Shown: one piece after another, positions 1 to 27,694 of the stretch
Position numbering within the stretch: position 1 is the first letter of the stretch
Layout: every line of letters starts with the position of its first letter
Assembly (NCBI RefSeq): GCF_947497285.1
Contig: NZ_CANMFT010000003.1
Location: 1-64,000, forward strand
Length of the DNA stretch: 64,000 nt
Reading direction: 5' to 3'
DNA from: an uncultured Aliiroseovarius sp.
GTDB lineage: Bacteria; Pseudomonadota; Alphaproteobacteria; Rhodobacterales; Rhodobacteraceae
Translations under genes and position numbers: made by a program
Notes under the pieces: model-generated
Told to the model about the DNA's origin: nothing
Database searches by the model: none
The model's input: only the letters and a program-made list of their open reading frames with translations

Positions 1-2
1 AT

Positions 3-125
3 ACCGTCACTGCAGAAATCAAAGCCGCCGAAAAAGAAGGAACCAAAAGAGCGGAAAATGAGGAAAATATAACGTTTGAGAAACAGCCGGGTCCCCACTT
101 CTTTTCTCTCGATGCCGCCGAATAG
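3..125 (+). CDS. C-terminal end of an unidentified protein (partial)
   Basis: An open frame enters from the left edge of the window and ends at a TAG at 123-125, giving about 40 residues. The visible tail is rich in Lys and Glu (AEKEGTKRAENEEN) and so probably helical or disordered, and ends in HFFSLDAAE. No domain can be recognised from this fragment. It runs in the same direction as the exported-protein genes that follow, 87 bases upstream of the next start, so it may be the preceding member of that group. That it is a real gene is inferred only from the uninterrupted frame and its position. Confidence 0.4.
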   Translation, partial: TVTAEIKAAEKEGTKRAENEENITFEKQPGPHFFSLDAAE

Positions 126-212
126 AGGATCGGCATCGTGCAAGCCTGCGAACCCAATCGGCCGCCCAAGTAATTGCTATGCCCTTGGTCATCAAACAAT
201 TGGAGAAAAGCT

Positions 213-2327: not shown

Positions 2328-2349
2328 TAGATGAAAGAGAGTGACAGAT

Positions 2350-5437: not shown

Positions 5438-6014
5438 AGGTTTGGTATCGGACAGCGCTTGGGCACTCTGCGCGGTTTTTTTCCTTGGAAGTGTTTGTAC
5501 GGCAAATGCCCAATCTGAAGGCGACGCTTCGATTGCAGTACCAATGGGAATAGTAGGTACTCACCATCTCTTGGTCGCTGAAGTGCTCGAAGAGGCTGGG
5601 ATCGACTTCCAAGTTAGTTTCGACAACGATGTGTGTTCATCAGTCTCGCGAAACGAGGTGTATAAGATCATTCCAGGCGAAGGCGAAGTGCTCTCTGGTG
5701 ATAACCCTCTTGTCGTACTTCGAGTGCTTCGCTCGACAAAACTTGTGACTGTTCCTGACTTGTCGGGTCTCTCTTTGGAGTCGGCACGTGGTGCGGTAGA
5801 AGGAATAGGTCTCCGCTTCCATGATGGAGGCTCCAAGGGACCGAGACGAGGCGATTGGTGTGGCATTTACACAGATCGGCAGACAAGTTCAGACGTTAGA
5901 CAGCAAGAGCCTGAGTCTGGTAACTCGCTGGCTTGTGGGGAGACTGTGACGGCATACAAAGAGTGGTGGGGCACCTGGCAGTCTCAGCGCGCTTCAAATG
6001 GGCAGTGCATGTAG
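5403..6014 (+). CDS. exported PASTA-type repeat protein 2
   Basis: This 203-residue protein is a paralogue of the preceding one, with the same layout: a hydrophobic export signal ending at ANAQ near residue 37, a first repeat (VPMGIVGTHHLLVAEVLEE) and a second, clearer PASTA repeat (VPDLSGLSLESARGAVEGIG). Shared features include the phrase GI-x-(Y/F)-QVS after repeat 1, a single Cys soon after it, and a Cys-containing loop before the C terminus. The start lies 35 bases inside the previous gene. The tail is Trp-rich (EWWGTWQ). The two proteins may form a pair binding cell-wall material or the other exported products. No known operon of this composition comes to mind. Confidence 0.6.
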   Translation: MWLERRIASSIRGLVSDSAWALCAVFFLGSVCTANAQSEGDASIAVPMGIVGTHHLLVAEVLEEAGIDFQVSFDNDVCSSVSRNEVYKIIPGEGEVLSGDNPLVVLRVLRSTKLVTVPDLSGLSLESARGAVEGIGLRFHDGGSKGPRRGDWCGIYTDRQTSSDVRQQEPESGNSLACGETVTAYKEWWGTWQSQRASNGQCM

Positions 6015-6648
6015 GTATGGCAGTATATTTCTCTAAGACGCAGTGTGTGACCGACCCACTCCCACAATTTGCGAATTGAAGCGATACACTATCTTCATTA
6101 TTGTCGTTCTTTAGACAGTCGGTTTTGATGCAGCCTTGGGCTGCCTAGCATCTGAAGAATCCTAGAGGGCTCAAGAACTCATGTGTAAACCTGAATATTT
6201 TTGAGCCTTTTTTAACACGCTGATGGAGGAGCCGTCGTTCGCCGCGGGCTGACTAAGGCACAGGTTGGGCTCAAACCGGCCGTCCGCTGCAGTGTTCGCG
6301 AATGACCGCTTTTGGCTGTTCGCGGCCATCCGCTGTGGCTTCCTCAATTCAATTCTAGCTTTATGCAGTAAAAGGCTCCCACTCCGTTCCGTAGAAAAAC
6401 CGAAAAAGCTTGTGTCCTACCCCTACCTCATCGAATTGAAGGGGGGAGTTAACAACAACAACCCAAATCTCAACACTTGAGAGTCGTTTTATATCCCTGT
6501 GCCACGGGGTGCGAATTACCCCCATGCGGAGGCAGGTCGGAAAGGACCCAAGCTTTCTTCTCACTCGGTGAACTGGGCGAATTCCGGACCTTCGCCGCAA
6601 ACGCGAGTTATTGCTCAATAGTTCACCAAAGCGGACATTGAGATCTGG
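6015..6648 (+). other. intergenic region between exported-protein genes and STAND gene
   Basis: About 630 bases without a convincing gene. It holds a hairpin (6127-6152, GATGCAGCC arm) and a terminator-like structure at 6168-6213. Near 6277-6337 two related stretches (GGCCGTCCGCTG and GGCCATCCGCTG) flank a GCGAATGACCGCTTTTGG phrase, a type of degenerate repeat often left in roseobacter islands. The region separates convergent transcription units. Confidence 0.4.
6168..6213 (+). terminator. terminator-like hairpin after the PASTA genes
   Basis: GGCTCAA at 6168-6174 pairs with TTGAGCC at 6201-6207, followed directly by six Ts (6208-6213). The loop is long (26 bases), which weakens the call. 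Position 150 bases after the last exported-protein gene fits an end of that transcript. Confidence 0.4.
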
Positions 6649-9600
6649 CTAACCATCTATTTGGGCTTGAATGATCGAGATAACTTGTTGGTAGTCGGTA
6701 AACTCGTCTATCGAGGCATAAATCTGAAGTGCTTGAAGAGCGCGGATGGCTCTGTCGTTTTCTCCTTCATTCAAGGCCCGCTGAGCTTCGGTGAAGTACC
6801 GACTAAACGCTCCACTATTCAACATTGTTTGCCTCCAATCCACTGCTTCAGACGATGCTAGAAATCGCGCCATCTGGAGCGCCTCATCGAGAAGCGTATG
6901 CGACCCTTGCACGTATCTAAGGATTGGGGTGTCGACAAACGCGCCAGCATGCAGCTTCTTTGTCACTTCGTGGGGAAATTCATTTGCCGCCTCGATCATC
7001 CTGCGCGCCAAGGACAACTCAGCGCTCGCCCTATCAATGTCGCCTGAATTCAAATGGTTCTGGAATTCACTGCCTAGCTTGTTCAGAGTGATTTTCACTA
7101 GGCCGTGCTGTGGCTCCGGGAACCTACAAGCCAATTCAGCAGCTTCCGTGAATAACTGTTCAGACGACTGTCCAAGATCGTACCGAGTGGCATATCCAGT
7201 CAGGTTGCCCAACATCATTGCAAATGCCTCGGCAATCTGTGGGGTGTTGATCGTTGTGGTGTATTCCCGACAACGCTCTAAAACTTCGCGAATCTGACGT
7301 GCTTGGTCGTCACCTGAGAACCCGCTAGTGATTTGCACCGCAGCCTGTACATAGTGCAGCGTCTTCAACGGATCGTTAGGTTGAATTCCGGCTCCGCGCC
7401 GCCGGATCGCTTCGGTACGTTCGAATTTGTATTGCCAGTCCCTGTTCGGGTCGTGGACCGCCATCACAGTCAGGCCGAGATCAATGCGGTCAAGGTTGGA
7501 CGACTGGAAGACCATCGGTTGGCCATTTCTTTCCAACGTCGAAAGTGAGCCAGCCAAGCCGCGAATCTCTTCCGCCCAATCTCTTGCTGTTCGTGAGTTG
7601 TGTCCATACTGGAACAGCGCGGCGACCACGTTAGCACACAACCCTTGGAACGAAAAAATTGTTGACCCGTATCTTGCGCCCCCAGCAAGATTCAACGAGG
7701 TGGTAAGCTCTGCAAACAGGTCTCGCGCCGGTTCAATGTCGCTTTGTCGAACAGAGAGCAGTCGAAGTAGTTGATGTTGAAAAATTTCGACCAAATGCGG
7801 CCCAAGCAAAGCGGTTTTGTCATCCTCTCCAAGTTGACGCCATGCCTCGATGACAGCGCTGCAGTACTCCGTTGGAAGAAGATTTTGCAGAAAATCTGGA
7901 CTTGCAGAAAGCGGTTCAATCTCGACAGTTGGACGGAGCTGAATTTCGGCAGGCACGATCCGCAGGTCATTGTTCGGGAATAGAGCCAGAATCTTGCCAA
8001 ATATGGCCCTCTCAATAAATACCAAGTCTCCGGAAGGTGCTCGGAGTTCACTCAGGATGTTTTTGTACGTTTCGATCCTCTGCGACTGTGGCATGGGGAT
8101 GGTTTCTAGTGAGTTCGCAAACGTGGCGAGATAGGCCATCCGGGATGGATCGTCGAACGACCAGTCACTGACAGCATAATTCAAGCTAGGATGGTCAGGG
8201 AAGGACTGGCCACAGCGATACAAAAAATTGGTAAACCCAGACGCGTTGAGCTCGTACGCTCTTTGAAAAATTGTCGGGCGTGTCCTCGGAGTCTCATGTC
8301 GTATTGCGTCCAACACATACAACTCGCCAAAGACATCCGGTTGTAGTGGCTCGTAGCTATGCGGGAGATGCACGGCTCCGATCATGCGAGCCACCTCTTC
8401 ACTGCAGTCCATCTGATCGAGATACTCTTGTGTTTCAGGGCGCAGCTGACTCGGCAAATCCTCCATCGAAAAGCCGCCAGTAGCAGTAGCAAGAACTAGG
8501 GCGTCGTGCGCCTCACGCGGCACAACTTGCCATCTTCGCTGGTTCTCTCGCTGCAGCATTTGGCGGATCGCTTCCATGAATTCGCCAGCTGGAAAGTCAT
8601 CTATTGCGTCCAAGGTATTCGGCAGTCGTTCCAGTACCAGACCTTCGTTGCGATATTTGTGGTTTGCTACCCAGTTCCCGATGTTGGGCACATGTTCAAT
8701 TGCGCTTAACCACCCTGAGTATTCTCGTTCGATAAGAATCAGTCGCACCTTATTCACGAAGCGATCAGATTGGCTGGCCGCGAACAGGCGTTGGAACAGC
8801 AATTGGATTTCTGGCTCTCGGCCAAGCGCATAGTCAATGACGATGAATGTGTTTTTATCGGGCAACCAATCTGAAAACGGAAAGGTAAGAAGATCACCTT
8901 CCAACCAACCCCAGTGCCAACCTTCAAGGCTAAGGCAGTGTTCCAGCAGCAAACGTGACTTGCCCGATAATCCAGGTCCAGTGACGTGCCACCAGCTAAA
9001 TGGCTCACCGCTTTCTGTGAATTCCCTTAACTGTGCGAGCTCTCCATCACGACCGACGAACTCACTCAAACGTTCATTGAACCGGAGTTGTCGAAATCCT
9101 TCTGGGTTATCGGTGCAATCCTGTGGATCGAGGAACGGCTGCGGAAGGTTATCGAAAAACGCCTGAGAGGCTCGGACAAGGTTGGGGGTAGTCGCGTCTT
9201 CGAGAATTGTAAGAATGCGGTCTGCGTAGTACCACTCAACCGAAATGCCGGCAGCCTTTAGGTCAGCAACAACACGCCCTTGTTCTGCTGTAAGCGCGGT
9301 AGTCGTGTCCGGCGCAACACCAGAAGAAAAGCAGTAGATTTTGTCCAGTTGGTATTCTCCGTCCTGGACAGGCTTGATGGCCTTTCGAAGTTTTTGGAAT
9401 GCATTTCCATTCTGGCTACCGTTTTGGCTGTGCTTGGCCTGAAAAGCGACCCATTCGCCGCTGGCAGTTTGGATTGGGACATTCTCAATACCTGGATACT
9501 GAGGCGGGCAAGTCAAACTGCCGGGCTCTACTGCAGCCTCGTGGCAAAACAGGCGACGCGCGACGTCCTTCTCAAAAATGATCTCCTGATTGTCTTGGGA

Positions 9601-9657
9601 TCGGAATACATCCCAGCTTGGATTATTCATGTACTTCTCGAAAAGAGGCTTTTGCAC
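6649..9657 (-). CDS. STAND NTPase with N-terminal nuclease-like domain (Avs-like antiviral candidate)
   Basis: The protein has 1002 residues. Residues about 25-150 look like a restriction-endonuclease-type domain: GIENVPI followed by FQAKH at 72-76, matching the core E/D...Q-x-K pattern of Mrr/Cap4-like nucleases. Residues about 198-330 carry a STAND-type NTPase: EFVGRDGELAQL, Walker A GPGLSGKS (227-234) and Walker B FIVIDYA (271-277). The remaining roughly 600 residues are helical and repeat-like, as in sensor regions of STAND proteins. Nuclease-STAND-sensor is the architecture of Avs proteins, which recognise phage proteins and then degrade DNA; that role here is inferred. The listed start is GTG; an ATG at 9630 with GAGAAG upstream is an alternative. 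The gene stands alone in the island. Confidence 0.75.
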   Translation of the reverse strand: MQKPLFEKYMNNPSWDVFRSQDNQEIIFEKDVARRLFCHEAAVEPGSLTCPPQYPGIENVPIQTASGEWVAFQAKHSQNGSQNGNAFQKLRKAIKPVQDGEYQLDKIYCFSSGVAPDTTTALTAEQGRVVADLKAAGISVEWYYADRILTILEDATTPNLVRASQAFFDNLPQPFLDPQDCTDNPEGFRQLRFNERLSEFVGRDGELAQLREFTESGEPFSWWHVTGPGLSGKSRLLLEHCLSLEGWHWGWLEGDLLTFPFSDWLPDKNTFIVIDYALGREPEIQLLFQRLFAASQSDRFVNKVRLILIEREYSGWLSAIEHVPNIGNWVANHKYRNEGLVLERLPNTLDAIDDFPAGEFMEAIRQMLQRENQRRWQVVPREAHDALVLATATGGFSMEDLPSQLRPETQEYLDQMDCSEEVARMIGAVHLPHSYEPLQPDVFGELYVLDAIRHETPRTRPTIFQRAYELNASGFTNFLYRCGQSFPDHPSLNYAVSDWSFDDPSRMAYLATFANSLETIPMPQSQRIETYKNILSELRAPSGDLVFIERAIFGKILALFPNNDLRIVPAEIQLRPTVEIEPLSASPDFLQNLLPTEYCSAVIEAWRQLGEDDKTALLGPHLVEIFQHQLLRLLSVRQSDIEPARDLFAELTTSLNLAGGARYGSTIFSFQGLCANVVAALFQYGHNSRTARDWAEEIRGLAGSLSTLERNGQPMVFQSSNLDRIDLGLTVMAVHDPNRDWQYKFERTEAIRRRGAGIQPNDPLKTLHYVQAAVQITSGFSGDDQARQIREVLERCREYTTTINTPQIAEAFAMMLGNLTGYATRYDLGQSSEQLFTEAAELACRFPEPQHGLVKITLNKLGSEFQNHLNSGDIDRASAELSLARRMIEAANEFPHEVTKKLHAGAFVDTPILRYVQGSHTLLDEALQMARFLASSEAVDWRQTMLNSGAFSRYFTEAQRALNEGENDRAIRALQALQIYASIDEFTDYQQVISIIQAQIDG

Positions 9658-10066
9658 AGCATGGTACGTTTCTGCCAGCCTTTTGCCAATGTCCGTTGTT
9701 CGGGAGCTGCACCGCAGAGTCGAGCTCCGTGCTCAAAGTCCGCAACGGGCAGAAAACTGTCGATAGGGAAAAATGATTTTCAAAACCACGTGAGAGCGCA
9801 TGTCTTACCGTTCTAGAAAAGCTAGAGAGATGCTCCTCACAGAGCATTGAAAATAATATACTTTATTGAACTGAGTTTCGGGCGACGGAGTTGAAGAATT
9901 GGTATTGGCTCACACCCCCGATCTTGCACATATCCACTGAAATTTCGCCATCTGAGGGAAATAAAATCTACGCGTGTTAGGGGGACGGGTCTGCAGGCTG
10001 AAACATCTCAGGTATTTGACCTACCCCCCCACGGGCCAAGGCTATAATTCGTTCAGTGTTGCGAAA
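9658..10066 (-). other. intergenic region upstream of the STAND gene
   Basis: About 410 bases with no gene. It contains a perfect short hairpin ATGCTC/GAGCAT (9830-9847), a TCTAG/CTAGA inverted repeat just before it, and an AT-rich stretch (9848-9870), all upstream of the minus-strand STAND gene. These could be promoter and operator elements, but no consensus promoter is clear. Confidence 0.35.
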
Positions 10067-10774
10067 CTATGCGACTTCCGATCTGTACTTCTTGAGTAAA
10101 CGGCCTACCGCATTTGAGAAAGACAACACACCCTTTGTTATCTCGCCATGGGCCGCCTCAATCTCAGTTGCGGGAAGCGACAACAATCCTTCATAGCCAT
10201 ACCCTTCTCGCTCGAACACTTTAACCACCCGCTTCTCAAACTCCCCCAAATCCATTTCAGTTTTGGACGCAGCTTGCTTTTCAGTGAGCGACCTTGAGGT
10301 CAACGCTGTCTCTCTCTCAGCACTTCTCTTTTTCTTTATTGTTTCCTTTATAGTTTCGGGTGAAGCGCACTTCAGAGTTGAGCGGAAGCGCGCTGCAGGT
10401 CGAGCGGAAGTAGAGTTCATGGATGAAGGGCGCCCTGAGCGTGACCTCAGTTCTGACAAACGCACAATCTGACCAAGTTCTTCTACAGAGTGAATCAAGA
10501 ACTGATTGCGGGAACGCTTGGCGGCACGATATCGTTTCACCGCACCTCGCTCTTCCAGCTCCTTGAAAGCAGAGCGAACACTCCGCTCGGTAAATCCAGT
10601 TTCTTCTGCAAGCCCGATGGCAGACGGATCACAACGCCCGGTTTTAGTGTTCTGACGATCCAGAAGTCTCATCAGCACGGCATAGCTAGAGCGGGTGAGC
10701 GGAGGATTCATCTGAGCCCAATACTGGGCGACGAACCATTTCTGCTTCAGGTCCAGAGGTGTTCTCTTTGACAT
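10067..10774 (-). CDS. helix-turn-helix protein of the island (plasmid/phage replication-type HTH)
   Basis: This 235-residue protein starts at 10774, where GAGG lies 7 bases upstream; an upstream extension to 10846 would overlap the preceding gene. Residues about 25-85 form a winged-HTH: LTRSSYAVLMRLLDR, then PSAIGLAEETGFTERSVRSA and FKELEERGAVKRY, the pattern seen in phage/plasmid replication initiators and HTH_36-type regulators. A Ser/Arg/Lys-rich linker follows (about 105-165), and the tail is helical. It lies 17 bases after the AlpA-like gene, so it is co-transcribed with the integration module. Whether it regulates transcription or replication of the element cannot be told from sequence. 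Confidence 0.6.
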   Translation of the reverse strand: MSKRTPLDLKQKWFVAQYWAQMNPPLTRSSYAVLMRLLDRQNTKTGRCDPSAIGLAEETGFTERSVRSAFKELEERGAVKRYRAAKRSRNQFLIHSVEELGQIVRLSELRSRSGRPSSMNSTSARPAARFRSTLKCASPETIKETIKKKRSAERETALTSRSLTEKQAASKTEMDLGEFEKRVVKVFEREGYGYEGLLSLPATEIEAAHGEITKGVLSFSNAVGRLLKKYRSEVA

Positions 10775-10791
10775 CGCGGCACCTCTATTGA

Positions 10792-11025
10792 TTATATAAT
10801 ATCGCCCATCAATCCATTTGCACGATTGGCGAGCACATCCCCACAAGTCTTAGAAACCATCCAATCATCAAGATCTTTCCGGCGATACCGGATAGCTCTA
10901 AGACCTATACGACAATAAACCGGTCCAACCTGTGGGCCAGTTCCCATCCGGAGTTTGGCGAGGTAGCTTTCGCTGAGGCCTGTGTAGCTGGCTGCCTCTG
11001 CAGCGGTGAGGTACTTCGGTTCCAC
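10792..11025 (-). CDS. AlpA/MerR-type excisionase-like DNA-binding protein
   Basis: This 77-residue protein begins KYLTAAEAASYTGLSESYLAKL, the standard N-terminal helix-turn-helix of AlpA/excisionase-family proteins, followed by a wing containing IRYRRKDLDDWM. Proteins of this kind act as recombination directionality factors or regulators of integrases. The gene lies between the recombinase pair (int and the unknown gene) and the HTH gene, all on the minus strand, which fits a role in excision control. No second domain is present; the length is normal for the family. Confidence 0.7.
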   Translation of the reverse strand: MEPKYLTAAEAASYTGLSESYLAKLRMGTGPQVGPVYCRIGLRAIRYRRKDLDDWMVSKTCGDVLANRANGLMGDII

Positions 11026-11080
11026 TTCATTCTCCTTGGCATACTTGATGACTTTGAGAATGATGGGCTTTCTTCTGGAA

Positions 11081-11809
11081 CTAAATGTCCATCAAATCGT
11101 AGTTTTCCATTTTGCCGTCCACGTGCTTGCGCCAGCTATCGTAAGCCTTCCTAAAACTCGTCTTCTTGATCCCGAAAACATCAAAGACGTCACGTAGGAA
11201 CCGACTCAAATCGCCATAATTATCCAAATCGTCTGGGATATTGATGCTCTTGTTAAATCTCGCGGCTCGAACACTGGCATCAATCAAAGCCCATTCATTG
11301 AACGTCTGTCTGTTGCGAGTGGGAATGCCGTCGGGAAGCTCTCGCTTTGTTATCTCAATCGCGGAAATCAATTCGTCAGAATGTTCGGCCAAAGACTTTA
11401 ATGCTGCATAAGCCTTCGTCGCACCACGTTCGGGCAACATATGTTGGAACAACACATCGTGTGTGGTCTTCTGCAGAAATCGTTCCTTGATCAAACTATC
11501 AACTTGTCCCGTATCCCAGTCCATTCGGTCCGTCACAAGCAACGGCAGATTGTTATACGCCCTAATAGCTTCAGACAGGGACCTTCTAAGCTTGTCCAAG
11601 GTTTTGCTCACATCATCCTTTCTCCAGAAATGAACCATCACATTGTCAAAGTTCGTAATTATGGATGCGGCGAGTTGGCTGGAGGAAAACCCTTTTACTG
11701 GACCGATATGCTCTTCCACCACAGGGATAAGGCGACGGCGAAGGTCGCGATATTCTTCACTGTCTGGATCGTGGTCTTGGAACGGTTTAACGCCCATTTT
11801 ATCATTCAT
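11081..11809 (-). CDS. unknown protein translationally coupled to the integrase
   Basis: This 242-residue soluble protein has no signal or membrane segment. Its start lies inside the 3' end of the recombinase gene (8-base overlap), implying translational coupling; a second in-frame ATG lies at 11797. The sequence is mostly helical and charged (YRDLRRRLIPVVEEHIGPV, TLDKLRRSLSEAIRAYNN, a C-terminal FRKAYDSWRKHVDG). No domain is recognised. Because it directly follows int and precedes the AlpA-like gene, a role in integration or excision, or in element maintenance, is the simplest guess. Confidence 0.5.
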   Translation of the reverse strand: MNDKMGVKPFQDHDPDSEEYRDLRRRLIPVVEEHIGPVKGFSSSQLAASIITNFDNVMVHFWRKDDVSKTLDKLRRSLSEAIRAYNNLPLLVTDRMDWDTGQVDSLIKERFLQKTTHDVLFQHMLPERGATKAYAALKSLAEHSDELISAIEITKRELPDGIPTRNRQTFNEWALIDASVRAARFNKSINIPDDLDNYGDLSRFLRDVFDVFGIKKTSFRKAYDSWRKHVDGKMENYDLMDI

Positions 11810-12893
11810 CGGGGAATGCTCCGTTTTGTCTTCTAGTTAATTCCTCACAGGCCACCTTCATCGCTGGACGCAACGCATCCAGACTGGGCTTCACATACCT
11901 CTGGCCAGTGATCGACAGCGGCGTGTGGTTCAGCAAGCGCCCAACCACTTCCTCGAGCACGCCAGCCTCCATGGCGACAGTCGCAAAGGTGCGACGGTGC
12001 GCGTGCGGACCCCATGCGAGTCTGGCTGGGTTTGTGATATGACCCAACTCCGACTTCGGAGATGGAAATACCCATTGCTCGCTTAAGCCACGTAGCGGCG
12101 CCAGAATCTCATGATGTAGCTGCAAGATGGGAAGATCAAAGCTGCGACCGTTCTTGGTCATGGGGAGGTGGATGTGATCTTCATGAATGTTCTTCCATTC
12201 CAAGGTAAGCGCCTCGCTCTTGCGCAAACCCGTATACAACAAGAGTTCATAGAAGACCTGATGGATGGGATTGGCGAGACCATCGACTTCGTCACGCCAT
12301 ACACCGAGATCCTCAATGACTTGTCCCTTTGGTTGCTCATCAAACCACTCGATCGCCATAGTAGGCGCCTCGGGCAGATCATAGACCCGTCTGGCGTGGT
12401 TCCAAATCGTTCGGAAATACTTGAGCACGTGATTGGCTGCTGATGGTGTCGCGGCCATCGATTGGTGCTTCTCCACCACCATCTTCTTTGAGATCTCATC
12501 CAGAGGCAGCTTGAGCCACTCCTTCAGGTGAAGCTCGAACTGCTTGCGCAGGGAGCGCTTATGCGCATCTGATCTGAGCTTCGGGCGCCCCAAATATCCT
12601 TCCAATGCGGCCTCAAGTGTCGGCGCGCCGATCTGCGCCACTTTCCCTGCGCCGCGCCCCATTTCCAGCGCAAGCTCCATCGCCGTCTGCCGTGCGGCCT
12701 GCGCCGAGATCACCGGGAACCGACCGATCATGATCCGCTTGGTTTGACCGCCAACGTCTTTCTGAAAGTACCAGGTTTTCGAACGCTTCCCGACGAAGAG
12801 GCAGAGCCCTCGCACCTCACTGTCCCAGTGCTTCTCGGTCCCCGTTTTGGACTGGGGCAGCTTGCGGGCAAAAGTTTCGGTTAGTTTTGGCAT
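11802..12893 (-). CDS. tyrosine recombinase / phage-type integrase of the island
   Basis: This 363-residue protein starts at ATG 12893; a longer frame to 13058 runs into the tRNA fragment and is rejected. Residues about 10-75 form the arm-DNA-binding domain usual in island integrases (LCLFVGKRSKTWYFQ...RIMIGRFP). Residues about 90-180 are the core-binding domain and 190-350 the catalytic domain. Visible catalytic residues are Arg224 (YTGLRKSEALTLEW), His297 and Arg300 (HAHRRTF), His323 (LLNHTPLS) and the nucleophile Tyr333 (GQRYVKP). The gene lies about 125 bases from a tRNA-Gly fragment and reads away from it, the standard arrangement for tRNA-integrating elements. All key residues are present, so it is probably active. 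Confidence 0.9.
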   Translation of the reverse strand: MPKLTETFARKLPQSKTGTEKHWDSEVRGLCLFVGKRSKTWYFQKDVGGQTKRIMIGRFPVISAQAARQTAMELALEMGRGAGKVAQIGAPTLEAALEGYLGRPKLRSDAHKRSLRKQFELHLKEWLKLPLDEISKKMVVEKHQSMAATPSAANHVLKYFRTIWNHARRVYDLPEAPTMAIEWFDEQPKGQVIEDLGVWRDEVDGLANPIHQVFYELLLYTGLRKSEALTLEWKNIHEDHIHLPMTKNGRSFDLPILQLHHEILAPLRGLSEQWVFPSPKSELGHITNPARLAWGPHAHRRTFATVAMEAGVLEEVVGRLLNHTPLSITGQRYVKPSLDALRPAMKVACEELTRRQNGAFPDE

Positions 12894-12933
12894 GAATTTC
12901 GTTGTCGGAATTTTGTAGGTATTGAACTGAAAG

Positions 12934-13013
12934 GCAGGGAAACTCAGGGAATGTCCCTGCAACAAATTCTTCCACAAAGTGAATGACTTGGCAACTACAG
13001 GAATGTCAGGGAA
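12934..13013. repeat. CAGGGAA repeats and palindrome between int and the tRNA fragment
   Basis: CAGGGAA occurs three times in the same direction (starting near 12935, 12945 and 13007), and TCCCTG lies in the opposite direction at 12954-12959, so CAGGGA-ATG-TCCCTG (12945-12959) is a perfect inverted repeat. Placed between the integrase start and the crossover-side tRNA fragment, they could be integrase arm-type sites or an operator. This is inference from position. Confidence 0.35.
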
Positions 13014-13018
13014 TGATA

Positions 13019-13065
13019 CATCACGAGCTTGGAAGGCTAAGGTCTTACCACTACACAACGCCCGC
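13019..13065 (-). pseudogene. 5' half of tRNA-Gly(TCC), truncated at the island junction
   Basis: Read on the minus strand from 13065, the sequence gives an acceptor 5' strand GCGGGCG, a D-arm (GTGTAGTGGTA), and an anticodon arm TTAGC-CTTCCAA-GCTCG whose loop holds TCC, as in bacterial tRNA-Gly. After about 47 bases the match stops: there is no T-arm (GGTTCGA) and no acceptor 3' strand. The break lies on the side facing the integrase, so this is most likely an attachment-site remnant. The gene is not functional as it stands. Confidence 0.75.
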
Positions 13066-20835: not shown

Positions 20836-21888
20836 CTAGCCAAAAAAGGACAGATCGGCAAAGGACCCGATGGCGCTGGCCAGTATCGGTGACACGATCG
20901 CCAGAGTGGACTTCAACGCATCCAGACTGGCGATCTGGTTGATGTTGAACCCTTCGATATCGGCGGCAAGCTCTGGCGACCCAGCCTGTTCTACGGCGGA
21001 TTTGAAACGCTCGATCCGAAGCCTCAGGATCAGGCTGACCGGCATATAGTAAGACAGGATCAGCACCGAATACGTCACGCCGCGAAACAGCGATACTGAA
21101 TTGACCAGACCTTCATGCGCAGACCGCACGGTGTCGTCTGCAATCAGCGCGCTGGGCCAGGTCATCCAAGCAAGAACCAGCACCATACCCGTCGTCAGCA
21201 GAATGCCAGAGCAATACAGGTAACGCTGCGCGGTATCTTGAGCCAACTGAAGCGCACGCCCTTCGGCAACCAACCCGTCAGGTGTCGCAAGGTCGGTTGA
21301 AGCGGGAGCCGCAAGCGCCAGAACCATTCCCGTGATGACCGCGCCTGCCGCCAAGGATGTCAGGATGTTCACCCGGTCGAGCAGATACTTCATCGCAAAG
21401 AAGGCACCTTCACCGTTGCAGGCCTGTGCCAATGCAGCCCCCGGCGCGCATCCCGGCAATTCACCAGCCCCCAGCGCGGTGCGGAACAGATTGTCGCCCA
21501 GAAGATAGTGGGATTCGAAACTGTTTGGCATCCACTCCGGTTCAAACGTCGAGAACATGAGCGAGGCGGCAATCACCCCCACAACCCCGCACATCGTGTA
21601 GCAAATCGACCGCATTGTATGGCGCGCATACAATTCAAAGGTGAAGATCGCCGTCAACGTGATCGTGACCGCGCCAAAGAACAAGAGCGCGGCCAGAAAC
21701 TTGTATCTGGCATCCAGTTCGGCCAGCCTTGATGTTTCATCCAGCTGCACACCTGTTACCGACACCGAGGTATCGCCAAACGTGCCCAGCAAGAACTCCG
21801 ACACCGTCAGAACCAGAACCGGCAACACCAGGATCAACAAGTGCTTCGGGGCGATCTGAAGCTTGCTAAAGTCAGACAAGGTTGCCAT
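20836..21888 (-). CDS. multi-pass membrane protein of the protease operon
   Basis: This 350-residue protein has about six or seven hydrophobic segments (HLLILVLPVLVLTVSEF, KFLAALLFFGAVTITLTAIF, CGVVGVIAASLMF, AAGAVITGMVLALAA, ILLTTGMVLVLAWMTW, TYSVLILSYYMPVSLIL and a C-terminal VSPILASAIGSFADLSFF). It has two cysteines in a loop (GCAPGAALAQACNG). No family is recognised. It is the last of three genes on one strand, 48 bases after the SGNH-caspase-M15 gene and so probably co-transcribed. As the only membrane component it could anchor, or be cleaved and activated by, the two protease-type proteins; this is a hypothesis. Confidence 0.65.
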   Translation of the reverse strand: MATLSDFSKLQIAPKHLLILVLPVLVLTVSEFLLGTFGDTSVSVTGVQLDETSRLAELDARYKFLAALLFFGAVTITLTAIFTFELYARHTMRSICYTMCGVVGVIAASLMFSTFEPEWMPNSFESHYLLGDNLFRTALGAGELPGCAPGAALAQACNGEGAFFAMKYLLDRVNILTSLAAGAVITGMVLALAAPASTDLATPDGLVAEGRALQLAQDTAQRYLYCSGILLTTGMVLVLAWMTWPSALIADDTVRSAHEGLVNSVSLFRGVTYSVLILSYYMPVSLILRLRIERFKSAVEQAGSPELAADIEGFNINQIASLDALKSTLAIVSPILASAIGSFADLSFFG

Positions 21889-21936
21889 TGGACCTCTGCC
21901 TCCTCATGCCGAGATCAAGGGGGTGAACAGGACCAT

Positions 21937-24900
21937 TCATCCGATATCGATATCAGCAATCAGGCTTTTTCGCGTGTCTGCCAGCTTGTCGCGAATGATA
22001 TCGCGCACATCGGCATAGATCGTCGGGCTAAGCGCGACCTTCTGTGCCGACAGCCAGTAGTCCAGCTCGTTCTTGCCCCAAGACACGAACAGGATGTTCT
22101 GTTTCTTGTCCTTGTAGCTGAAATTGAATGCACCAAGCGCCATGCTGATCACATCGCCGGAAGCCTCGGCGCTACCGATCTGAAAATTCCCACCGGTCGA
22201 GGTCGAGGTTTCGAAATCGAAAAGTTTGATCTTGCCGTCATCCGACGCCAGCCCGCGCAAAGCCTCGATCGCGCTTTCGACGATCTTGAACTGATTGCCT
22301 GTCGCTACTTGCGCAAGGGTCGCCAAAATCACCTTGTCGAAGCTGCCGCTGCCTTTCATCTTCTGGCTGGATTCAAATGGCGCTGCTTCGCGCGTCCACC
22401 CCATCAGGCTGAGCATCTCCATATAGGTTGCGTGCCACGCGGCTCGCTCGGTGACCGGATCGGCCTTGGCGTCCGCGGCGCGTTGGGCAAACAGCGTCGA
22501 CAGCAACACATCCTCTTTCTGGCTTGGCGTCAGATTCTCAACGAACGAGATTACGCTGGACGCATTGACCGCGGCTTGCATGGTTTGCTGATGCGCGGCG
22601 GATTCAGAGGTCGGGTCAAAGTCTTCACCGGACCGAGCCACCGGATCGGCAAAGGCCGACCTCCGCGATTTGCTGTCAGGCGCTGCGCGTGGCTTTGCCA
22701 ATTTCGTCGCAATCAGGATTGCCAAACGTTCGGCCAAACTGCTTGGCCGGCGCGTCAGCAAGGGCGTCGTGGCAGGCAGGGCTGCGCTGCGAAACGCGGG
22801 TGGCCAAGTGTTGTTGGTGCCGCGCGTATCGACATGGGTGAAGCTGTTGTATCGCCCGATCCCGCCGGTAAAGAAGCCCTCTTTGTCACGCAACCAACGC
22901 AACGCTTGCGCCACGTCCGGTGCCGCCATGCCGGACACTTTGAAATCCAATGCGCAAAACCGCACGTGCTGGCTTCTGGTCGCCCCATTGATGCACGCGT
23001 TATAGGCCGGTGCCCGGTAGGCGTTGGTGATCGCGATGGGTTTGTCCAGCCTGTCACGCAAGTGATCCAACACCTGAGCGGTCTTGGCGATATTGGTCCA
23101 AAGGCTGCGCGGCGGATAGCTGTTCTTACCCTGACAGGCACCGCCCGGCGTGTTGTGACTGCCGCCAAGGATCAAAAACTCGTCGGTGCTGAAATTCTTC
23201 AACCCCAGTGATTTGATGAACCCGTCAAAGTCGGAATAGTCCGGCCATTGCAAGGCGGCCGTTGCGCTGCGGAACCCGGCGCCGCGCGCCTTTGCCGACA
23301 GGATCGCATCAACTTCGGCGTCGGGCAGTTGATCATTCTCATCGCCTTCACCTTCGCCTTCATCATCGACCGCCTTTGTGACAGCCGTCGCGCTGGGCAC
23401 GGTGATGGAACCACCCCCGCACGGGGCGGAACTCTGCGCCACGGGTTGCAACGTGAACGGCCGGTCGGAGACAAAATTCGGCTCTTTGATCAGGCGTTCA
23501 AACAATTGCGGCGTCTGGCTGTCACTGCCTATTTCAACGTCGATCGCGTCCCGAAAGGCGCGATAGCCTTCGTTAAATCGCCCGTTGTCCCAGACCCTCA
23601 GCAGCGCGCCGGTGAAGGCGCCGTTTGCAGGCCCGTCCATCGCAAATTGTTCGTCCTTACACGCCCCAAGGTTCAACACAGACGCTTGAATGGGACTGCT
23701 GAGCGGCGCGGTCATGACGCTTTCCTTCATCGCGCTGTAGGATTTGGAGGCCTCCCGATACGCGGCTTCATTCGCGCGCCAAACGCGGTCTTCGACATGC
23801 AGAGGCATTGCACGCACCCGCGCATCGGGCGTGATGGTGCGGCCAAACAAGGCTGACGGTGCCGTCGGCCCAAACTTCGCCATCGAACCGGAGTGGCAGG
23901 TGTCAGGCACGATTAACACCCGCACCCCGTCCCTGAATTTGGTCCAGAGCATGTAAAGCTCGTCATCGGCGATCTGGAAATCGTAAAGACACAAGGTCTC
24001 GTCCATCTTCTGGTCGCCATCATGGTCTTCATCCTGATTGAAATCAGGCACGCGCCCACCGTGCCCCGAAACCGACAGCAGAAACATGTCACCGGGCTGC
24101 AAGTCCTTGGCGGCGCGTTCGATCTGGTCGACAACATTCTGTCGGGTGGCATCGTGGGTCAGCAGCAATTCCGGTTTGAACCCTTCCGCAAGCGCGATGT
24201 CCTGCATGGCAAGCGCATCCGCCTCGCACGCGGCCAACTGACCATCCCAGCCATCATAATGCGCCGGGTCCACAGTGTTCAGACCAACATGAAGCGACAT
24301 GCCATTCGCGGTTCCACCCGCGATAACAGGCGCGCTTTGCAGGGACCGGGAAATCTGACTGGCAGACCCAAAAGGACCACCTATGATCATCGGCGGACCA
24401 CTGCGTGCATTGGCGATGCGGTTGATTTCGCGCGCGAATTTTCGCGACACATCGCGGTAGCCATCATTGACCGGGTGCAGACCGTCGAACCAACGGTGAT
24501 CCCCCACAACACCGCGGCAGTCGATATAGGTCACATGCGGCATGGAACGGGCCAACCTGCGCAAACGGCGGTTGAACTGATCCATCATTTCGGCCGCAAT
24601 GGCTTTTTGAAGGGTCTTGTCGCGGATCCCGCGCTGTTCCATCGGCTTACCCAGCCAGCGGTCCTTGTTCGGCACCGGATAGTCATATCCGTGGCACAGG
24701 ATAGAGACATGCGGGAAATGCTGATGCACCTGCCGGAACATCCGCCCATAGTGCTTCAGCGCGTCATCCAACAGCGCCTGAAACGAAGGCAGCAGATAGT
24801 CTGCTGGCATCAAGTCAGGGTCGAACTCCTCTAGGTGCGACGCCAAGGCTCCGCTGGCCACCAGATCGTTGCCTCCGCCCGACAGCAGCAGGATCTCGGC

Positions 24901-25338
24901 GCCCGTATCTTTCAGCGCGCCCAGATATTCCTGCTTGTCCGCCATCCGTTTCAAAAGGTCGCCAGCCGCGCCAAGCGAATAGATCGCGTATCGTTTCATC
25001 AGGTGATCAATCGTGTCGATCAGGCGAAGCGGATACTGAAACCAACTGTCGCCTTCGGACACGATGATCGGGCCGTCATAGCCGTCAGAAAGCTTTTTCT
25101 GGAACTTGCCCTTGCGGCTCATTCTGGAAAACCAATTGGCTGAGTTCATCACCGCAGCACTCCGCTGCGCGGCATTCGGCCCGCGCGGGATCTGCACCGT
25201 TGCCGGGTTCAACTTAAATTGCGGCGCGAAGGGGCCGGATTGCTCTTCATCGAGGATGAAGTATTCGGAAAGCTCGGCGTCATCTGTATTCAGATCCGCC
25301 ATCTTGGACATCAATTGTTCCACTGTAATCTTGGCCAT
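21937..25338 (-). CDS. SGNH hydrolase - caspase-like peptidase - M15 peptidase fusion
   Basis: The protein has 1133 residues and no signal peptide. Residues about 88-310 form an SGNH/GDSL-type hydrolase: EGDSWF (Ser98), GGGND (154-158) and a C-terminal DGLHP (Asp285, His288). Residues about 345-620 form a caspase-fold (C14) peptidase with His426 in SVSGHGG and the nucleophile Cys481 in PDTCHSGS, plus the small-subunit phrase GACKDEQ...GAFTGALL. An acidic linker (about 655-675) leads to a M15A/VanY-type peptidase (about 715-850): AYRAPAYN, SQHVRFCALDF (His791, Asp798) and THVD (His835), the three zinc ligands. The last 280 residues are unassigned. All catalytic residues are kept. It is the middle gene of a three-gene operon, 22 bases after the papain-like gene. 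Confidence 0.85.
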   Translation of the reverse strand: MAKITVEQLMSKMADLNTDDAELSEYFILDEEQSGPFAPQFKLNPATVQIPRGPNAAQRSAAVMNSANWFSRMSRKGKFQKKLSDGYDGPIIVSEGDSWFQYPLRLIDTIDHLMKRYAIYSLGAAGDLLKRMADKQEYLGALKDTGAEILLLSGGGNDLVASGALASHLEEFDPDLMPADYLLPSFQALLDDALKHYGRMFRQVHQHFPHVSILCHGYDYPVPNKDRWLGKPMEQRGIRDKTLQKAIAAEMMDQFNRRLRRLARSMPHVTYIDCRGVVGDHRWFDGLHPVNDGYRDVSRKFAREINRIANARSGPPMIIGGPFGSASQISRSLQSAPVIAGGTANGMSLHVGLNTVDPAHYDGWDGQLAACEADALAMQDIALAEGFKPELLLTHDATRQNVVDQIERAAKDLQPGDMFLLSVSGHGGRVPDFNQDEDHDGDQKMDETLCLYDFQIADDELYMLWTKFRDGVRVLIVPDTCHSGSMAKFGPTAPSALFGRTITPDARVRAMPLHVEDRVWRANEAAYREASKSYSAMKESVMTAPLSSPIQASVLNLGACKDEQFAMDGPANGAFTGALLRVWDNGRFNEGYRAFRDAIDVEIGSDSQTPQLFERLIKEPNFVSDRPFTLQPVAQSSAPCGGGSITVPSATAVTKAVDDEGEGEGDENDQLPDAEVDAILSAKARGAGFRSATAALQWPDYSDFDGFIKSLGLKNFSTDEFLILGGSHNTPGGACQGKNSYPPRSLWTNIAKTAQVLDHLRDRLDKPIAITNAYRAPAYNACINGATRSQHVRFCALDFKVSGMAAPDVAQALRWLRDKEGFFTGGIGRYNSFTHVDTRGTNNTWPPAFRSAALPATTPLLTRRPSSLAERLAILIATKLAKPRAAPDSKSRRSAFADPVARSGEDFDPTSESAAHQQTMQAAVNASSVISFVENLTPSQKEDVLLSTLFAQRAADAKADPVTERAAWHATYMEMLSLMGWTREAAPFESSQKMKGSGSFDKVILATLAQVATGNQFKIVESAIEALRGLASDDGKIKLFDFETSTSTGGNFQIGSAEASGDVISMALGAFNFSYKDKKQNILFVSWGKNELDYWLSAQKVALSPTIYADVRDIIRDKLADTRKSLIADIDIG

Positions 25339-25360
25339 CGTCTTTCTCCTTCGCGTTGTC

Positions 25361-27577
25361 TTAATCTCCGGGTTGCTCGTATCCCTTGATGAAATCGAAA
25401 ATGCTGTTGGTGATCGTCGTGTCCTTGTTCAGGGCCGATTGTTCGATCCGATCAAGGTCATGTTTCTGCGCCGCAATTCTGTTCAGCCGAAAGACAGCAC
25501 CAGGTGCGCCAAAGGACGCATCTGCGGCGACCTCTGCCATGCCCATAAAGGGTCTGGGACGCAGCAGGTAAGGTGCGTTCGTGTCGTCGGCGGCTTTGGG
25601 CAGGGGATAGCGATCTTCGAACGCGCGCGAGACCAGATGCAGGATGGATTTACCATAGCTGCCAAAACAGATGCGATCCTCAAGCTCTGGTGTCGGCACA
25701 TAGATCCGCGCCCGCGGTTGGGCCTTTGTTTTCAATAAGGGCTGGACGACAGGCCTGCGGGCTGCGCTTTTGCGTTTCTTCTTGCCAGAGATCTGTCCGT
25801 TCATCACATCGACAAGCGGCATCAACCGCTTGTTGGCACGCGGCATTCCGATCGCCGGGTGGATCAGGTGCAGTGAATCAAAACGGTCCATCCCGCCGGG
25901 GGTAAGCGATGACGGATCGAACCAGCGCGTGTTTTGTTCCAGCAATGACAGCATCTCGTGGACCACCAGCGCGCCCGCGCCTTCCGCCACCACATGCAGT
26001 TCACAGCCGGTGTCCTTCTTCAGCTTCAGAAGGTCCAGAAGGAAGCTGCCGACAAAGCCCGTCTTGATGTGGTCAAGATCCTCGGCTTCGTAGTCTTCAT
26101 AGGGCAATTCTTCTGTGCCGCGCAGTGCCCGACGCGCGCCAAGCTCGATATCGCGCCAGAAGGCCCGCCCGACCCCGCGCACGCGGTTTTCGATCAGCTC
26201 GTCCAAGTGGGCGGCATTCTCGCCCGCCTGTTCTTCGCAACTGTCGAACAGGCTTTGCAGCACCTCCAGAGACTTCTCGACGAAGCTGTTGCACCAGAAA
26301 ACCGTGTAAGGATACAGCCCAAGATCCTTGATCAGTGTCTTGCGCCCGACCGCGGCGGCAAAGGCAGGTTTGATCCCTTCCAGACTGCCCGGTATCCACA
26401 CCAACACGCCACGATACCTGGGCTTTTCTGCAGCCGGCTCGGCGTTCGGATCCAGCCGGTCTTGCAGATAGCTTTTGGTGCGCGACCATCCATCCTTGAA
26501 GGACGGATATGATCCCGTTGTCACGTGATACCCATCATCCAGATGCATGTAGTGACCCACCAGTTCGAAACACGGGGTCGAGCCCGTCTGGATGCGCCCA
26601 ACGACACCTTTTGTGCCCTTCTCGCCAACTGACGCGCCAAACGCAGAAGGCGCGAAGACGCCCAGCCGCAGCACCCAGCTGTCCACGACGTTCTGCGCCC
26701 AATCCGCATAAGACCACAACCCGATCCCCGCCTGACCCTTGTAGCCGCCCCAAGCAGGCCCCCAAGAGTTCATCACGTGAAACCCGTTTTCGTCATAGCC
26801 GGTCAGCACAAAGGCATGCGTGCCGGTTTTGCCCAGCGCTGGCGGCCACGTGATCACGCCACCTGTCTCTGGCGTCGCGTTCAGCCAGCCATCATGGACA
26901 TTGGCAGTCGTCAGCACGGCCTCGGCATCGTTCAGTGCGGCATGAAAGTGGTTCAGGATCGACGCCAGACGGAAATACGCCCCCAGCCCGATTTCCCGCG
27001 CTTTCTTTGCCTGCGCAACCGTGGTGAACTTGCGCGCATGGTCAGGTCCGTTTGCAACATAGCAGTCGCTTTGCCACCGATCTTGGTCCGTCGCAGGCGT
27101 GTCGAACGGCCAGTCTCGGCAAACGCCATGGTGATAAAACCCCTTGATGGCCGACCGCAGCGTCAGAATACCCTCTTCGGCCAGCACGTCGCCGTTTTCA
27201 AGCTCGGGGTAGCGATCGTGGAATGAGGCAATCCGATAGAGCATATCGGCGCTGACAATATCCTTCTGCCGTTCTGACAGATCGCCCGGATATCCGTTGC
27301 CCAATGTGGATGAGCGCCGAAGTTGCTGCAAGTTGCGTTGGATATCGATCAGGTTGGCCAGCGCGAAGCCAACGCACCGCCCACTTGACCCCTGATTTCG
27401 GACACCGAAGATCGGACTGTTCAGCCCTGAATTCGGGTCCGTCTGCATGAGCTTGCGGTCGATCGTAACCGTGTCACGCAGCACTGAAAGATTGGGAACA
27501 TAGTCCTGATCGCGCAGGTCCACCCAGTCGGCGCGCACACCAACGTCGTTGATTAGCCCTGAAGCGAATTCGGTCAT
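25361..27577 (-). CDS. papain-like cysteine peptidase fused to an alpha/beta-hydrolase-like domain
   Basis: The protein has 738 residues and no signal peptide. Residues about 15-310 form a C1-type (papain-fold) peptidase: oxyanion Gln62 and nucleophile Cys68 in NQGSSGRCVGFA, His254 in GTHAFVLTGYD and Asn270 in VMNSWGPAWGG. From about residue 385 a second domain reads like an alpha/beta hydrolase (GVLVWIPGSLEG, then HVVAEGAGALVVHEML near 528-543), but the nucleophile elbow is A-E-G-A-G rather than G-x-S-x-G, so this half may be catalytically dead or a binding module. It is the first gene of the operon with the SGNH-caspase-M15 fusion. The absence of a signal implies a cytoplasmic action. Confidence 0.8.
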   Translation of the reverse strand: MTEFASGLINDVGVRADWVDLRDQDYVPNLSVLRDTVTIDRKLMQTDPNSGLNSPIFGVRNQGSSGRCVGFALANLIDIQRNLQQLRRSSTLGNGYPGDLSERQKDIVSADMLYRIASFHDRYPELENGDVLAEEGILTLRSAIKGFYHHGVCRDWPFDTPATDQDRWQSDCYVANGPDHARKFTTVAQAKKAREIGLGAYFRLASILNHFHAALNDAEAVLTTANVHDGWLNATPETGGVITWPPALGKTGTHAFVLTGYDENGFHVMNSWGPAWGGYKGQAGIGLWSYADWAQNVVDSWVLRLGVFAPSAFGASVGEKGTKGVVGRIQTGSTPCFELVGHYMHLDDGYHVTTGSYPSFKDGWSRTKSYLQDRLDPNAEPAAEKPRYRGVLVWIPGSLEGIKPAFAAAVGRKTLIKDLGLYPYTVFWCNSFVEKSLEVLQSLFDSCEEQAGENAAHLDELIENRVRGVGRAFWRDIELGARRALRGTEELPYEDYEAEDLDHIKTGFVGSFLLDLLKLKKDTGCELHVVAEGAGALVVHEMLSLLEQNTRWFDPSSLTPGGMDRFDSLHLIHPAIGMPRANKRLMPLVDVMNGQISGKKKRKSAARRPVVQPLLKTKAQPRARIYVPTPELEDRICFGSYGKSILHLVSRAFEDRYPLPKAADDTNAPYLLRPRPFMGMAEVAADASFGAPGAVFRLNRIAAQKHDLDRIEQSALNKDTTITNSIFDFIKGYEQPGD

Positions 27578-27670: not shown

Positions 27671-27694
27671 AAAAAGAGGCCTGACTTGAGCCTC
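27671..27694 (-). terminator. terminator after the sugar dehydrogenase gene
   Basis: On the minus strand GAGGC (27694-27690) pairs with GCCTC (27680-27676), followed by five Ts (27675-27671). It lies about 40 bases downstream of the dehydrogenase stop and upstream of the protease operon, separating the two units. Confidence 0.5.

What the first reader, a model, noticed from the sequence alone, without database searches (positions are those of the whole stretch)
20836..27577. Three-gene operon of protease fusions plus a membrane protein: candidate undescribed system
Papain-hydrolase, SGNH-caspase-M15 and a 6-7-helix membrane protein are encoded on one strand with gaps of 22 and 48 bases and a terminator upstream. 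Two cytoplasmic cysteine-protease proteins next to a membrane protein recall proteolytically triggered membrane effectors such as bacterial gasdermin systems, although none of the three is a gasdermin. Alternatives are cell-wall remodelling or secreted-protein processing.
Basis: inference. Interest (0 to 1): 0.85.

Follow-up and report, generated by a model that had tools for sequence, protein, structure and literature searches.

The report
Caspase fused to endolysin and pore-like domain
A marine bacterium carries a small gene cluster in which one giant protein joins a caspase-type protease to a cell-wall-cutting enzyme and to a domain predicted to fold like pore-forming toxins, next to a papain-type protease; it looks like a protease-triggered lysis device, which would be new, but its action is untested.

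Summary
The three genes are real and as described. A: papain-type protease plus hydrolase-like domain without its catalytic serine. B: SGNH esterase + metacaspase + phage-endolysin-type M15 peptidase + a C-terminal domain unknown to Pfam. C: membrane protein of six to eight hydrophobic segments. Among the best 80 of 217 relatives of A, an SGNH-type gene lies nearby in 49 (with caspase in 42); C follows in only 11. So A+B is the recurrent unit and the trio a genus-level version, found at several chromosomal sites. It is not obligatory: 5 of 11 SGNH-caspase plasmid records lack an adjacent A. Chromosomal flanks are mostly ordinary genes, though some plasmid copies sit near defence-like genes. 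The surprise is inside B: the predicted fold of its last 229 residues has 13 significant PDB hits, all of the Cyt/Evf/volvatoxin fold, without sequence support. Linkers around the endolysin and pore-like domains keep an arginine, the kind of residue orthocaspases cut after. Best reading: a caspase-gated lysis protein with holin-like and endolysin functions in one chain; trigger and target unknown.

The parts
25361..27577 (-). Gene A, 738 aa: papain-type cysteine protease plus alpha/beta-hydrolase-like domain; no TM segment by a simple hydropathy scan
26618..27577 (-). A residues 1-320, papain-type domain; Q62, C68, H254, N270
   Evidence: H254 and N270 in 81 of 81, Q62 and C68 in 80 of 81 (one gap) aligned A proteins
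25364..26617 (-). A residues 321-738, alpha/beta-hydrolase-like domain; the serine of HSAG is replaced (EGAG, position 533)
21937..25338 (-). Gene B, 1133 aa: SGNH - metacaspase - M15 endolysin-type peptidase - Cyt/Evf-like domain
24364..25338 (-). B residues 1-325: conserved N-terminal motif plus SGNH esterase domain (S98, N157, D285, H288)
   Evidence: Lipase_GDSL_2 E 4e-11; S, N, H in 50 of 50 and D in 48 of 50; motif seen only in SGNH proteins of the loci searched
23497..24264 (-). B residues 359-614: metacaspase domain (H426, C481)
   Evidence: Peptidase_C14 E 5e-16; closest solved chain 3bij (GSU0716) E 2e-66; H and C in 42 of 42
23269..23271 (-). B Arg690 in the caspase-M15 linker, candidate self-cleavage site
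   Evidence: R 26, K 1, A 1 of 28 in a linker of low conservation
22828..23091 (-). B residues 750-837: M15_3 peptidase, endolysin type (H791, D798, H835, D837)
   Evidence: Pfam E 4e-19; phrog_894 endolysin E 6e-24; four residues in 28 of 28
22633..22635 (-). B Arg902 just before the C-terminal domain, candidate self-cleavage site
   Evidence: R in 21 of 23
21940..22626 (-). B residues 905-1133: domain with Cyt/Evf/volvatoxin-like predicted fold
   Evidence: AlphaFold2 mean pLDDT 71, pTM 0.71; Foldseek PDB top 13 hits all of this fold; relatives annotated as separate genes on Sinorhizobium and Vibrio plasmids
20836..21888 (-). Gene C, 350 aa multi-helix membrane protein with two Cys (C147, C157) invariant in 10 of 10 aligned relatives
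   Evidence: model too weak to use, pLDDT 54.7
27676..27694 (-). terminator-like hairpin upstream of A

Best explanation
A and B form a protease-gated, cell-envelope-destroying module. B is stored in the cytoplasm as a one-chain precursor. On an unknown signal its metacaspase (helped or restrained by the papain-type A) becomes active and cuts B after the conserved arginines that flank the M15 domain. This frees a Cyt-like domain, which permeabilises the inner membrane, and an endolysin-type peptidase plus SGNH esterase, which then reach and degrade the wall: holin and endolysin logic in one polypeptide under caspase control. C, the membrane protein of the Aliiroseovarius version, would receive, restrain or aid the membrane step. 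Shown: domains, intact catalytic residues, recurrent A-B linkage, conserved linker arginines. Predicted: the fold. Inferred: cytoplasmic storage, cleavage, pore formation, lysis, the role of A and C, and the direction (own cell more likely than a competitor).
For: A precedes a caspase-type SGNH protein closely: by my gene of 41 A-B pairs overlap or lie under 50 bases apart, in Rhodobacterales, Hyphomicrobiales and two Granulosicoccus bins. Catalytic residues of papain, caspase and M15 are kept in all scorable relatives, those of SGNH in all but two, which have Asn for Asp. The M15 domain is endolysin-like. Peptidoglycan hydrolases recur in the family in unrelated forms: M15 fused in 27 of 42 caspase-type loci; a gene like an annotated TIGR02594 protein at +2 in 2 loci; a GH19-type gene at -1 in 4 loci, one of them scanned; GH108 plus PG_binding_3 in 6 of 62 same-strand proteins near A in loci without an SGNH gene; CHAP and amidase-caspase neighbours; an SGNH-amidase-M15 protein in S. 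fredii. The C-terminal domain's 13 PDB fold hits at E<0.001 are all Evf, Cyt1A, Cyt2Ba, a delta-endotoxin (1cby; CytB, recalled) or volvatoxin A2; next hit E 0.013, probability 0.10. In S. fredii a relative of this domain is a separate gene directly before the SGNH-amidase-M15 gene, with a serine protease gene after it. Linker Arg/Lys in 27 of 28 and Arg in 21 of 23. Cyt1Aa is a protoxin activated by proteolysis (PMC7052140, passages). Neither A nor B of the window shows a TM segment.
Against: The Cyt-like match is structural only: no match to Pfam Bac_thur_toxin in the genome at E<=10, no Cyt, Evf or volvatoxin chain by profile, TM-scores 0.31-0.48 at rmsd 6.4-8.8, from a 13-sequence alignment, and no second aligner. 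In S. meliloti GR4 relatives of the domain lie among genes annotated as hypothetical, NYN and transposase, with no A or B module found there. Five caspase-M15 loci lack the domain, and many A loci have no caspase. A is not obligatory: of the 11 SGNH-caspase plasmid records, 6 have A adjacent and 5 do not, and two of six class genomes with an SGNH hit have no A hit. The 80 loci were found through A, so they cannot measure how often B lacks A. No sensor domain was recognised. Arginine preference of B's caspase is inferred from orthocaspases (PMC6426788, start of abstract in the listing), not tested.
Confidence: 0.42

Rival explanations
1. An exported antibacterial enzyme kit: A, B and partners (peroxidase, trypsin, endolysins, chitosanase) are released by lysis, vesicles or a secretion system and attack neighbouring cells; C would protect the producer.
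For: The wider family mixes SGNH-trypsin, animal-type haem peroxidase, papain-hydrolase and wall hydrolases; a rhizobial plasmid cluster with an SGNH-caspase gene adds chitosanase, L,D-transpeptidase, C25 peptidase and a Rap1a/Tai-type immunity gene; the domains behind the SGNH part are exchanged as in polymorphic toxins.
Against: No TM segment by hydropathy and no RTX repeat by Pfam in A or B of the window; signal peptides were judged by eye only. The TssB family is absent from the three trio genomes in the 196 searched (G000, G012, G051); 5 of 12 A carriers have it against 50 of 184 others, p 0.32, with the weak A hit G145 counted among the others (6 of 13 if counted as carrier). Other secretion systems were not searched for. 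No immunity-like gene is constant; C is missing from most A-B loci.
Confidence: 0.22
2. An anti-phage abortive-infection system in the narrow sense, with B as death effector and A or C as sensor.
For: Caspase plus pore-like domain recalls gasdermin systems (recalled); a PADLOC caspase model matches B at 5.5e-9; patchy distribution and several genomic sites within a genus; some plasmid copies lie near SIR2/AAA, ABC-three-component, VapBC or TcmP genes.
Against: Only 5 PADLOC families, one member each (three of them mad genes), in 100 flank proteins of species-genome loci; no phage-sensing domain seen.
Confidence: 0.14
3. Housekeeping envelope remodelling or protein processing; the fold match of the C-terminal domain is a lipid- or protein-binding fold without pore activity.
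For: The commonest families in the flanks are metabolic (25 of 110 shown); A's hydrolase domain is degenerate in this lineage; Evf itself is not an established pore-former (recalled).
Against: Accessory distribution: A in 13 of 196 order genomes, one of them a weak hit, and none in the congener G164; the same operon at several sites in one genus.
Confidence: 0.15

Closest known systems
Prokaryotic metacaspases/orthocaspases fused or linked to wall hydrolases (Asplund-Samuelsson 2012, PMC3501461; passages, section 13)
   Same: Caspase domain with intact HC dyad; [quoted passage not shown]
   Different: Here SGNH + caspase + M15 + Cyt-like domain in one chain, with a papain-hydrolase partner; the main text of that paper has 0 occurrences of 'papain' and of 'M15'. 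Its Figure 5 and supplements were not seen, so overlap with the Rhizobium operon is possible.
Bacterial gasdermin systems (recalled)
   Same: Caspase-type protease set to release a membrane-permeabilising effector in the cytoplasm.
   Different: Different effector fold; effector and protease fused in cis; endolysin and esterase in the same chain; no gasdermin seen.
Cyt / Evf / volvatoxin A2 fold proteins
   Same: Predicted fold; protoxin logic for Cyt1Aa (PMC7052140, passages).
   Different: No sequence similarity detected; domain of a multi-enzyme protein, not a stand-alone insecticidal or fungal toxin.
Phage holin-endolysin lysis cassettes (recalled)
   Same: Endolysin-type M15 domain without visible signal peptide (phrog_894) plus a proposed membrane-active function.
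   Different: Chromosomal, caspase in the same chain, no holin family recognised, SGNH esterase added.
NucA/trypsin 'System 3' conflict systems (PMC7159879, passages, section 32)
   Same: Alphaproteobacterial, several peptidases, papain-like and lysozyme effectors, proposed proteolytic cascade.
   Different: No nuclease or NTPase domain found in A, B or C (EAD1 was not tested by itself); 'SGNH' and 'peroxidase' have 0 occurrences in the main text.

Membership tests
Metacaspase/orthocaspase (C14) | C14 p20 fold with His-Cys dyad | tested here: met
   Pfam C14 E 5e-16; H426 and C481 in 42 of 42
Metacaspase/orthocaspase (C14) | Cleavage after Arg/Lys | not testable with these tools
   only conserved linker Arg seen
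M15_3 endolysin-type peptidase | Pfam M15_3 above cut-off with zinc ligands and acid | tested here: met
SGNH esterase | S, N, D, H catalytic set | tested here: met
   50/50, 50/50, 48/50, 50/50; all four in the window B
Papain-type peptidase (C1-like) | Q, C, H, N set | tested here: met
   Pfam C1 itself is sub-threshold
Alpha/beta hydrolase (active) | G-x-S-x-G nucleophile | tested here: not met
   EGAG in the window A; lost in 41 of 41 scorable caspase-partnered A, kept in 36 of 36 others
Cyt/Evf/volvatoxin fold | Fold | tested here: inconclusive
   13 of 13 PDB hits at E<0.001, but TM 0.31-0.48 and a mean pLDDT of 71
Cyt/Evf/volvatoxin fold | Sequence membership in Pfam Bac_thur_toxin | tested here: not met
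   no match at E<=10 in the genome; no Cyt-like chain by profile
Cyt/Evf/volvatoxin fold | Membrane permeabilisation | not testable with these tools
   needs liposome assay
Bacterial gasdermin system | Gasdermin effector | tested here: not met
   no gasdermin hit for A, B or C, nor among the 50 listed fold hits of the C-terminal domain; the fold of C is undetermined
T6SS effector | T6SS in the host genome | tested here: not met
   PF05591 (TssB) absent from the three trio genomes in the set; other T6SS genes not searched
Known anti-phage system | PADLOC model set or defence-island location | tested here: not met
   only a caspase model on B; chromosomal flanks; some plasmid copies near defence-like genes

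The most novel reading that the evidence does not exclude
B is a single-chain, caspase-released lysis machine: a metacaspase that carries its own pore-forming (Cyt-fold) domain, endolysin and esterase, so that one protease activation gives both the membrane hole and the wall cut. It would be a bacterial counterpart of caspase-gasdermin death built on an unrelated pore fold, with papain-type A as initiator or second executioner protease.
Probability: 0.35. Interest if true: 0.93.

Novelty: new variant of a known kind. Interest (0 to 1): 0.8.

Why it matters
Bacterial caspase relatives are common but mostly without a known target (recalled; PMC3501461 leaves 70 of 217 metacaspase operons without a function). 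Here the likely substrate and the likely effectors are in the same chain, so the question whether bacterial metacaspases execute lytic death becomes testable with one protein. If right, it adds a pore fold unrelated to gasdermin to protease-gated cell death and explains the recurrent pairing of caspases with wall hydrolases.

Tried and rejected
Constant trio: rejected, C in 11 of 80 loci. Defence island on chromosomes: rejected for the set sampled (100 of the 141 flank proteins listed were given, and that list already left out nine near-duplicate loci). T6SS cargo: not supported. Prophage: two A-like loci and one relative of the C-terminal domain in the viral collection, six distant SGNH relatives. 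EAD-type adaptor: a conserved motif of about 70 residues precedes the SGNH site, but was found only in SGNH proteins among the loci searched; a genome-wide search for it was not run. Hydrolase loss as a repeated co-evolution: on the tree it is one change in one clade, so it gives one independent pair at most; the long-branch row L121, whose partner is an amidase-caspase protein, also lacks the serine but falls in that clade. SLATT membership of C: E 0.39 only. Fold of C: model too weak to search. Viral fold library for the C-terminal domain: no hit at E<=0.001. VIA-align was not available, so the Cyt-like match has no second structural aligner. Far-gene control for wall hydrolases (103 of the 124 sampled proteins given, short ones dropped) shows only the 25 commonest families of 167, so a single GH108 could be hidden there.

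My gene calls are a home-made codon-score method; starts may be off by tens of residues, one A gene (L075) was missed, and L087 has a 655-base gap between A and B by these calls. Several loci end near A (for example L080), so some partners may be cut off.
Full report
1. Observation. Genes A (25361-27577), B (21937-25338) and C (20836-21888) lie on the minus strand with gaps of 22 and 48 bases. B carries Lipase_GDSL_2, Peptidase_C14 and Peptidase_M15_3 above Pfam cut-offs; its caspase is closest among solved chains to the Geobacter protein GSU0716, 3bij, E 2e-66. A has only sub-threshold papain hits in Pfam but matches the solved bacterial cysteine protease 3ois at E 1e-7. C has no significant family in Pfam, PADLOC, NCBIfam or PHROGs. 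dN/dS is 0.065-0.193 for A and B and 0.141-0.231 for C. A terminator-like hairpin separates A from the upstream glucose/sorbosone dehydrogenase gene.

2. What recurs. A profile of A found 217 relatives in the species-genome collection; the best 80 were kept. An SGNH-type gene is present in 49 of the 80: with caspase 42, with trypsin 6, SGNH alone 1. In 47 it lies in the same-strand run around a called A gene: 40 directly after, 6 two genes before with an animal-type haem peroxidase between, 1 directly before. L075 (A not called) and L087 (gap of 655 bases) are the other two. C follows B in 11 of 80, ten titled Aliiroseovarius and one an unnamed alphaproteobacterial bin. In 12 trio loci, the window included, gene neighbourhoods fall into several groups and the window's own matches none of them. 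In the congeners G012 and G051 the upstream flank gene of the window lies elsewhere than the trio; the ABC-type downstream flank gene was found only in G051, also elsewhere. The congener G164 has no A. In a class sample, A at E<1e-100 occurs in 6 of 289 genomes (16 at E<=0.001) and the SGNH domain in 6 of 289, with 4 in common (p 8e-7; p 9e-4 after leaving out the two genomes whose sequences were in the profiles); in one of the four (G325) the two genes are far apart, and two genomes have the SGNH domain without A.

Against constancy from B's side: of the 11 plasmid records with an SGNH-caspase protein (H1-H11), 6 have A adjacent, and 5 Rhizobium leguminosarum-group records do not; in the two of these whose neighbourhoods I looked at, the SGNH-caspase gene is followed by chitosanase and L,D-transpeptidase genes. 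The 80 loci were found through A and cannot measure this.

3. Catalytic state. Papain His and Asn are present in 81 of 81 aligned A proteins, Gln and Cys in 80 of 81 (one gap); SGNH Ser, Asn, His in 50 of 50 and Asp in 48 of 50; caspase His and Cys in 42 of 42; M15 residues in 28 of 28 (window included in each). A's second domain keeps the hydrolase serine in 36 of 36 scorable proteins without a caspase partner and has lost it in 41 of 41 with one; on the tree this is one change in one clade, so it is not repeated evidence. The caspase-partnered A carries a dead hydrolase domain and has stayed with a caspase partner through deep divergence.

4. The wall-lysis theme. B's M15 domain is of phage-endolysin type (phrog_894 endolysin, E 6e-24; phage endolysin hits). 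Relatives replace or supplement it: a GH19-type gene (one of 4 clustered neighbours scanned), GH108 with a peptidoglycan-binding domain (6 of 62 near proteins in loci without an SGNH gene), CHAP, an amidase-caspase fusion, genes like an annotated TIGR02594 protein, SGNH-amidase-M15.

5. The hidden fourth domain. Residues 905-1133 of B have no Pfam or PHROG family. Relatives occur on plasmids (49 records, 45 Sinorhizobium, 2 Vibrio), as separate genes where I looked at the annotation. In S. fredii one lies directly upstream of an SGNH-amidase-M15 gene and a serine protease gene, which suggests a functional link; in S. meliloti GR4 two copies lie without any A or B module in the 18.6 kb read. 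AlphaFold2 gave mean pLDDT 71 and pTM 0.71 from 13 sequences. Foldseek against the PDB gave 13 hits at E<0.001, all Evf, Cyt1A, Cyt2Ba, delta-endotoxin 1cby or volvatoxin A2, probability 1.00; the next hit has E 0.013 and probability 0.10. Against: TM-scores are 0.31-0.48, and sequence profiles find no Cyt-type protein. I hold the fold as likely (about 0.75) and pore activity as plausible (about 0.5); both figures are judgement.

6. How it may work. In linkers of low conservation (mean commonest-letter frequency 0.52 and 0.60, against 0.75 in the caspase), a basic residue stands out in each: position 690 (R 26, K 1 of 28) between caspase and M15, and position 902 (R 21 of 23) just before the Cyt-like domain; R871 and R884 are also conserved. 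Orthocaspases cleave after positively charged residues (PMC6426788, start of abstract in the listing). Cyt1Aa is a protoxin activated by proteolysis (PMC7052140, passages). The simplest mechanism is self-cleavage that frees a membrane-permeabilising domain and an endolysin. Trigger, order of events, and the parts played by A and C are inferred or unknown.

7. What it is not, as far as tested. Not a constant trio. Not in defence islands in the chromosomal sample, although plasmid copies lie near SIR2/AAA genes (R. ruizarguesonis), ABC-three-component genes (S. fredii) and VapBC/TcmP genes (S. meliloti). The T6SS sheath gene TssB is absent from the three trio genomes searched. No gasdermin was seen. 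C-like proteins at 24-28 per cent identity lie beside FAD-oxidase genes in two loci scanned (L044, L045) and near an ABC-transporter gene in one (L048), so C looks recruited. Some other A-B loci carry unrelated multi-helix proteins: one of 607-610 residues directly after the SGNH-caspase gene in 4 Sinorhizobium/Ensifer loci, and one of 564-581 residues two genes before A in two Paracoccus loci.

8. Known work. PMC3501461 (passages, section 13) is the nearest: it reports caspase-amidase proteins, one with a GDSL lipase, and a protease operon in four Rhizobium strains that may overlap with this family; I did not see its Figure 5 or supplements. PMC7159879 (passages, section 32) describes multi-peptidase conflict systems; SGNH and peroxidase do not occur in its main text. 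PMC8195603 (passages) has one papain mention of another kind. Searches of the held library listed no paper whose title or shown abstract describes this unit; most subscription journals are not held.

Noticed in passing
window 1-13058: A stretch of lower G+C (about 0.48-0.51 over 1-12000, against about 0.58) ends with a tyrosine integrase gene (11802-13058) and holds a 1002-aa gene with a weak AAA hit and several proteins without a Pfam family: probably a separate integrated element.
   Followed up: partly
L037 5609-11676 and relatives L096, L098, L100, L103, L107, L115: Three-gene set SGNH-trypsin, animal-type haem peroxidase, papain-hydrolase on one strand: an assembly that resembles the enzyme kit of neutrophil granules (comparison recalled).
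   Followed up: partly
L052 6290-8212, L088 14319-16148: A multi-helix membrane protein of about 610-640 residues without a Pfam or PHROG family (L052 copy scanned) recurs beside A/SGNH-caspase genes in rhizobia, at times with a solute-binding protein gene.
   Followed up: partly
L053 8872-9648 and Vibrio plasmid locus L153 5857-6687: Separate genes related to the Cyt/Evf-like domain on Sinorhizobium and Vibrio plasmids; 97 places in 49 records, so several records hold two or more copies.
   Followed up: no
L044, L045: C-like membrane proteins lie next to a gene for an FAD-linked oxidase in the two loci scanned: possible clue to the ancestral role of C.
   Followed up: no
L121 7056-9956: A Granulosicoccus bin encodes an Amidase_2-caspase protein of 966 residues directly before an A gene, a separate version of the same theme.
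   Followed up: partly
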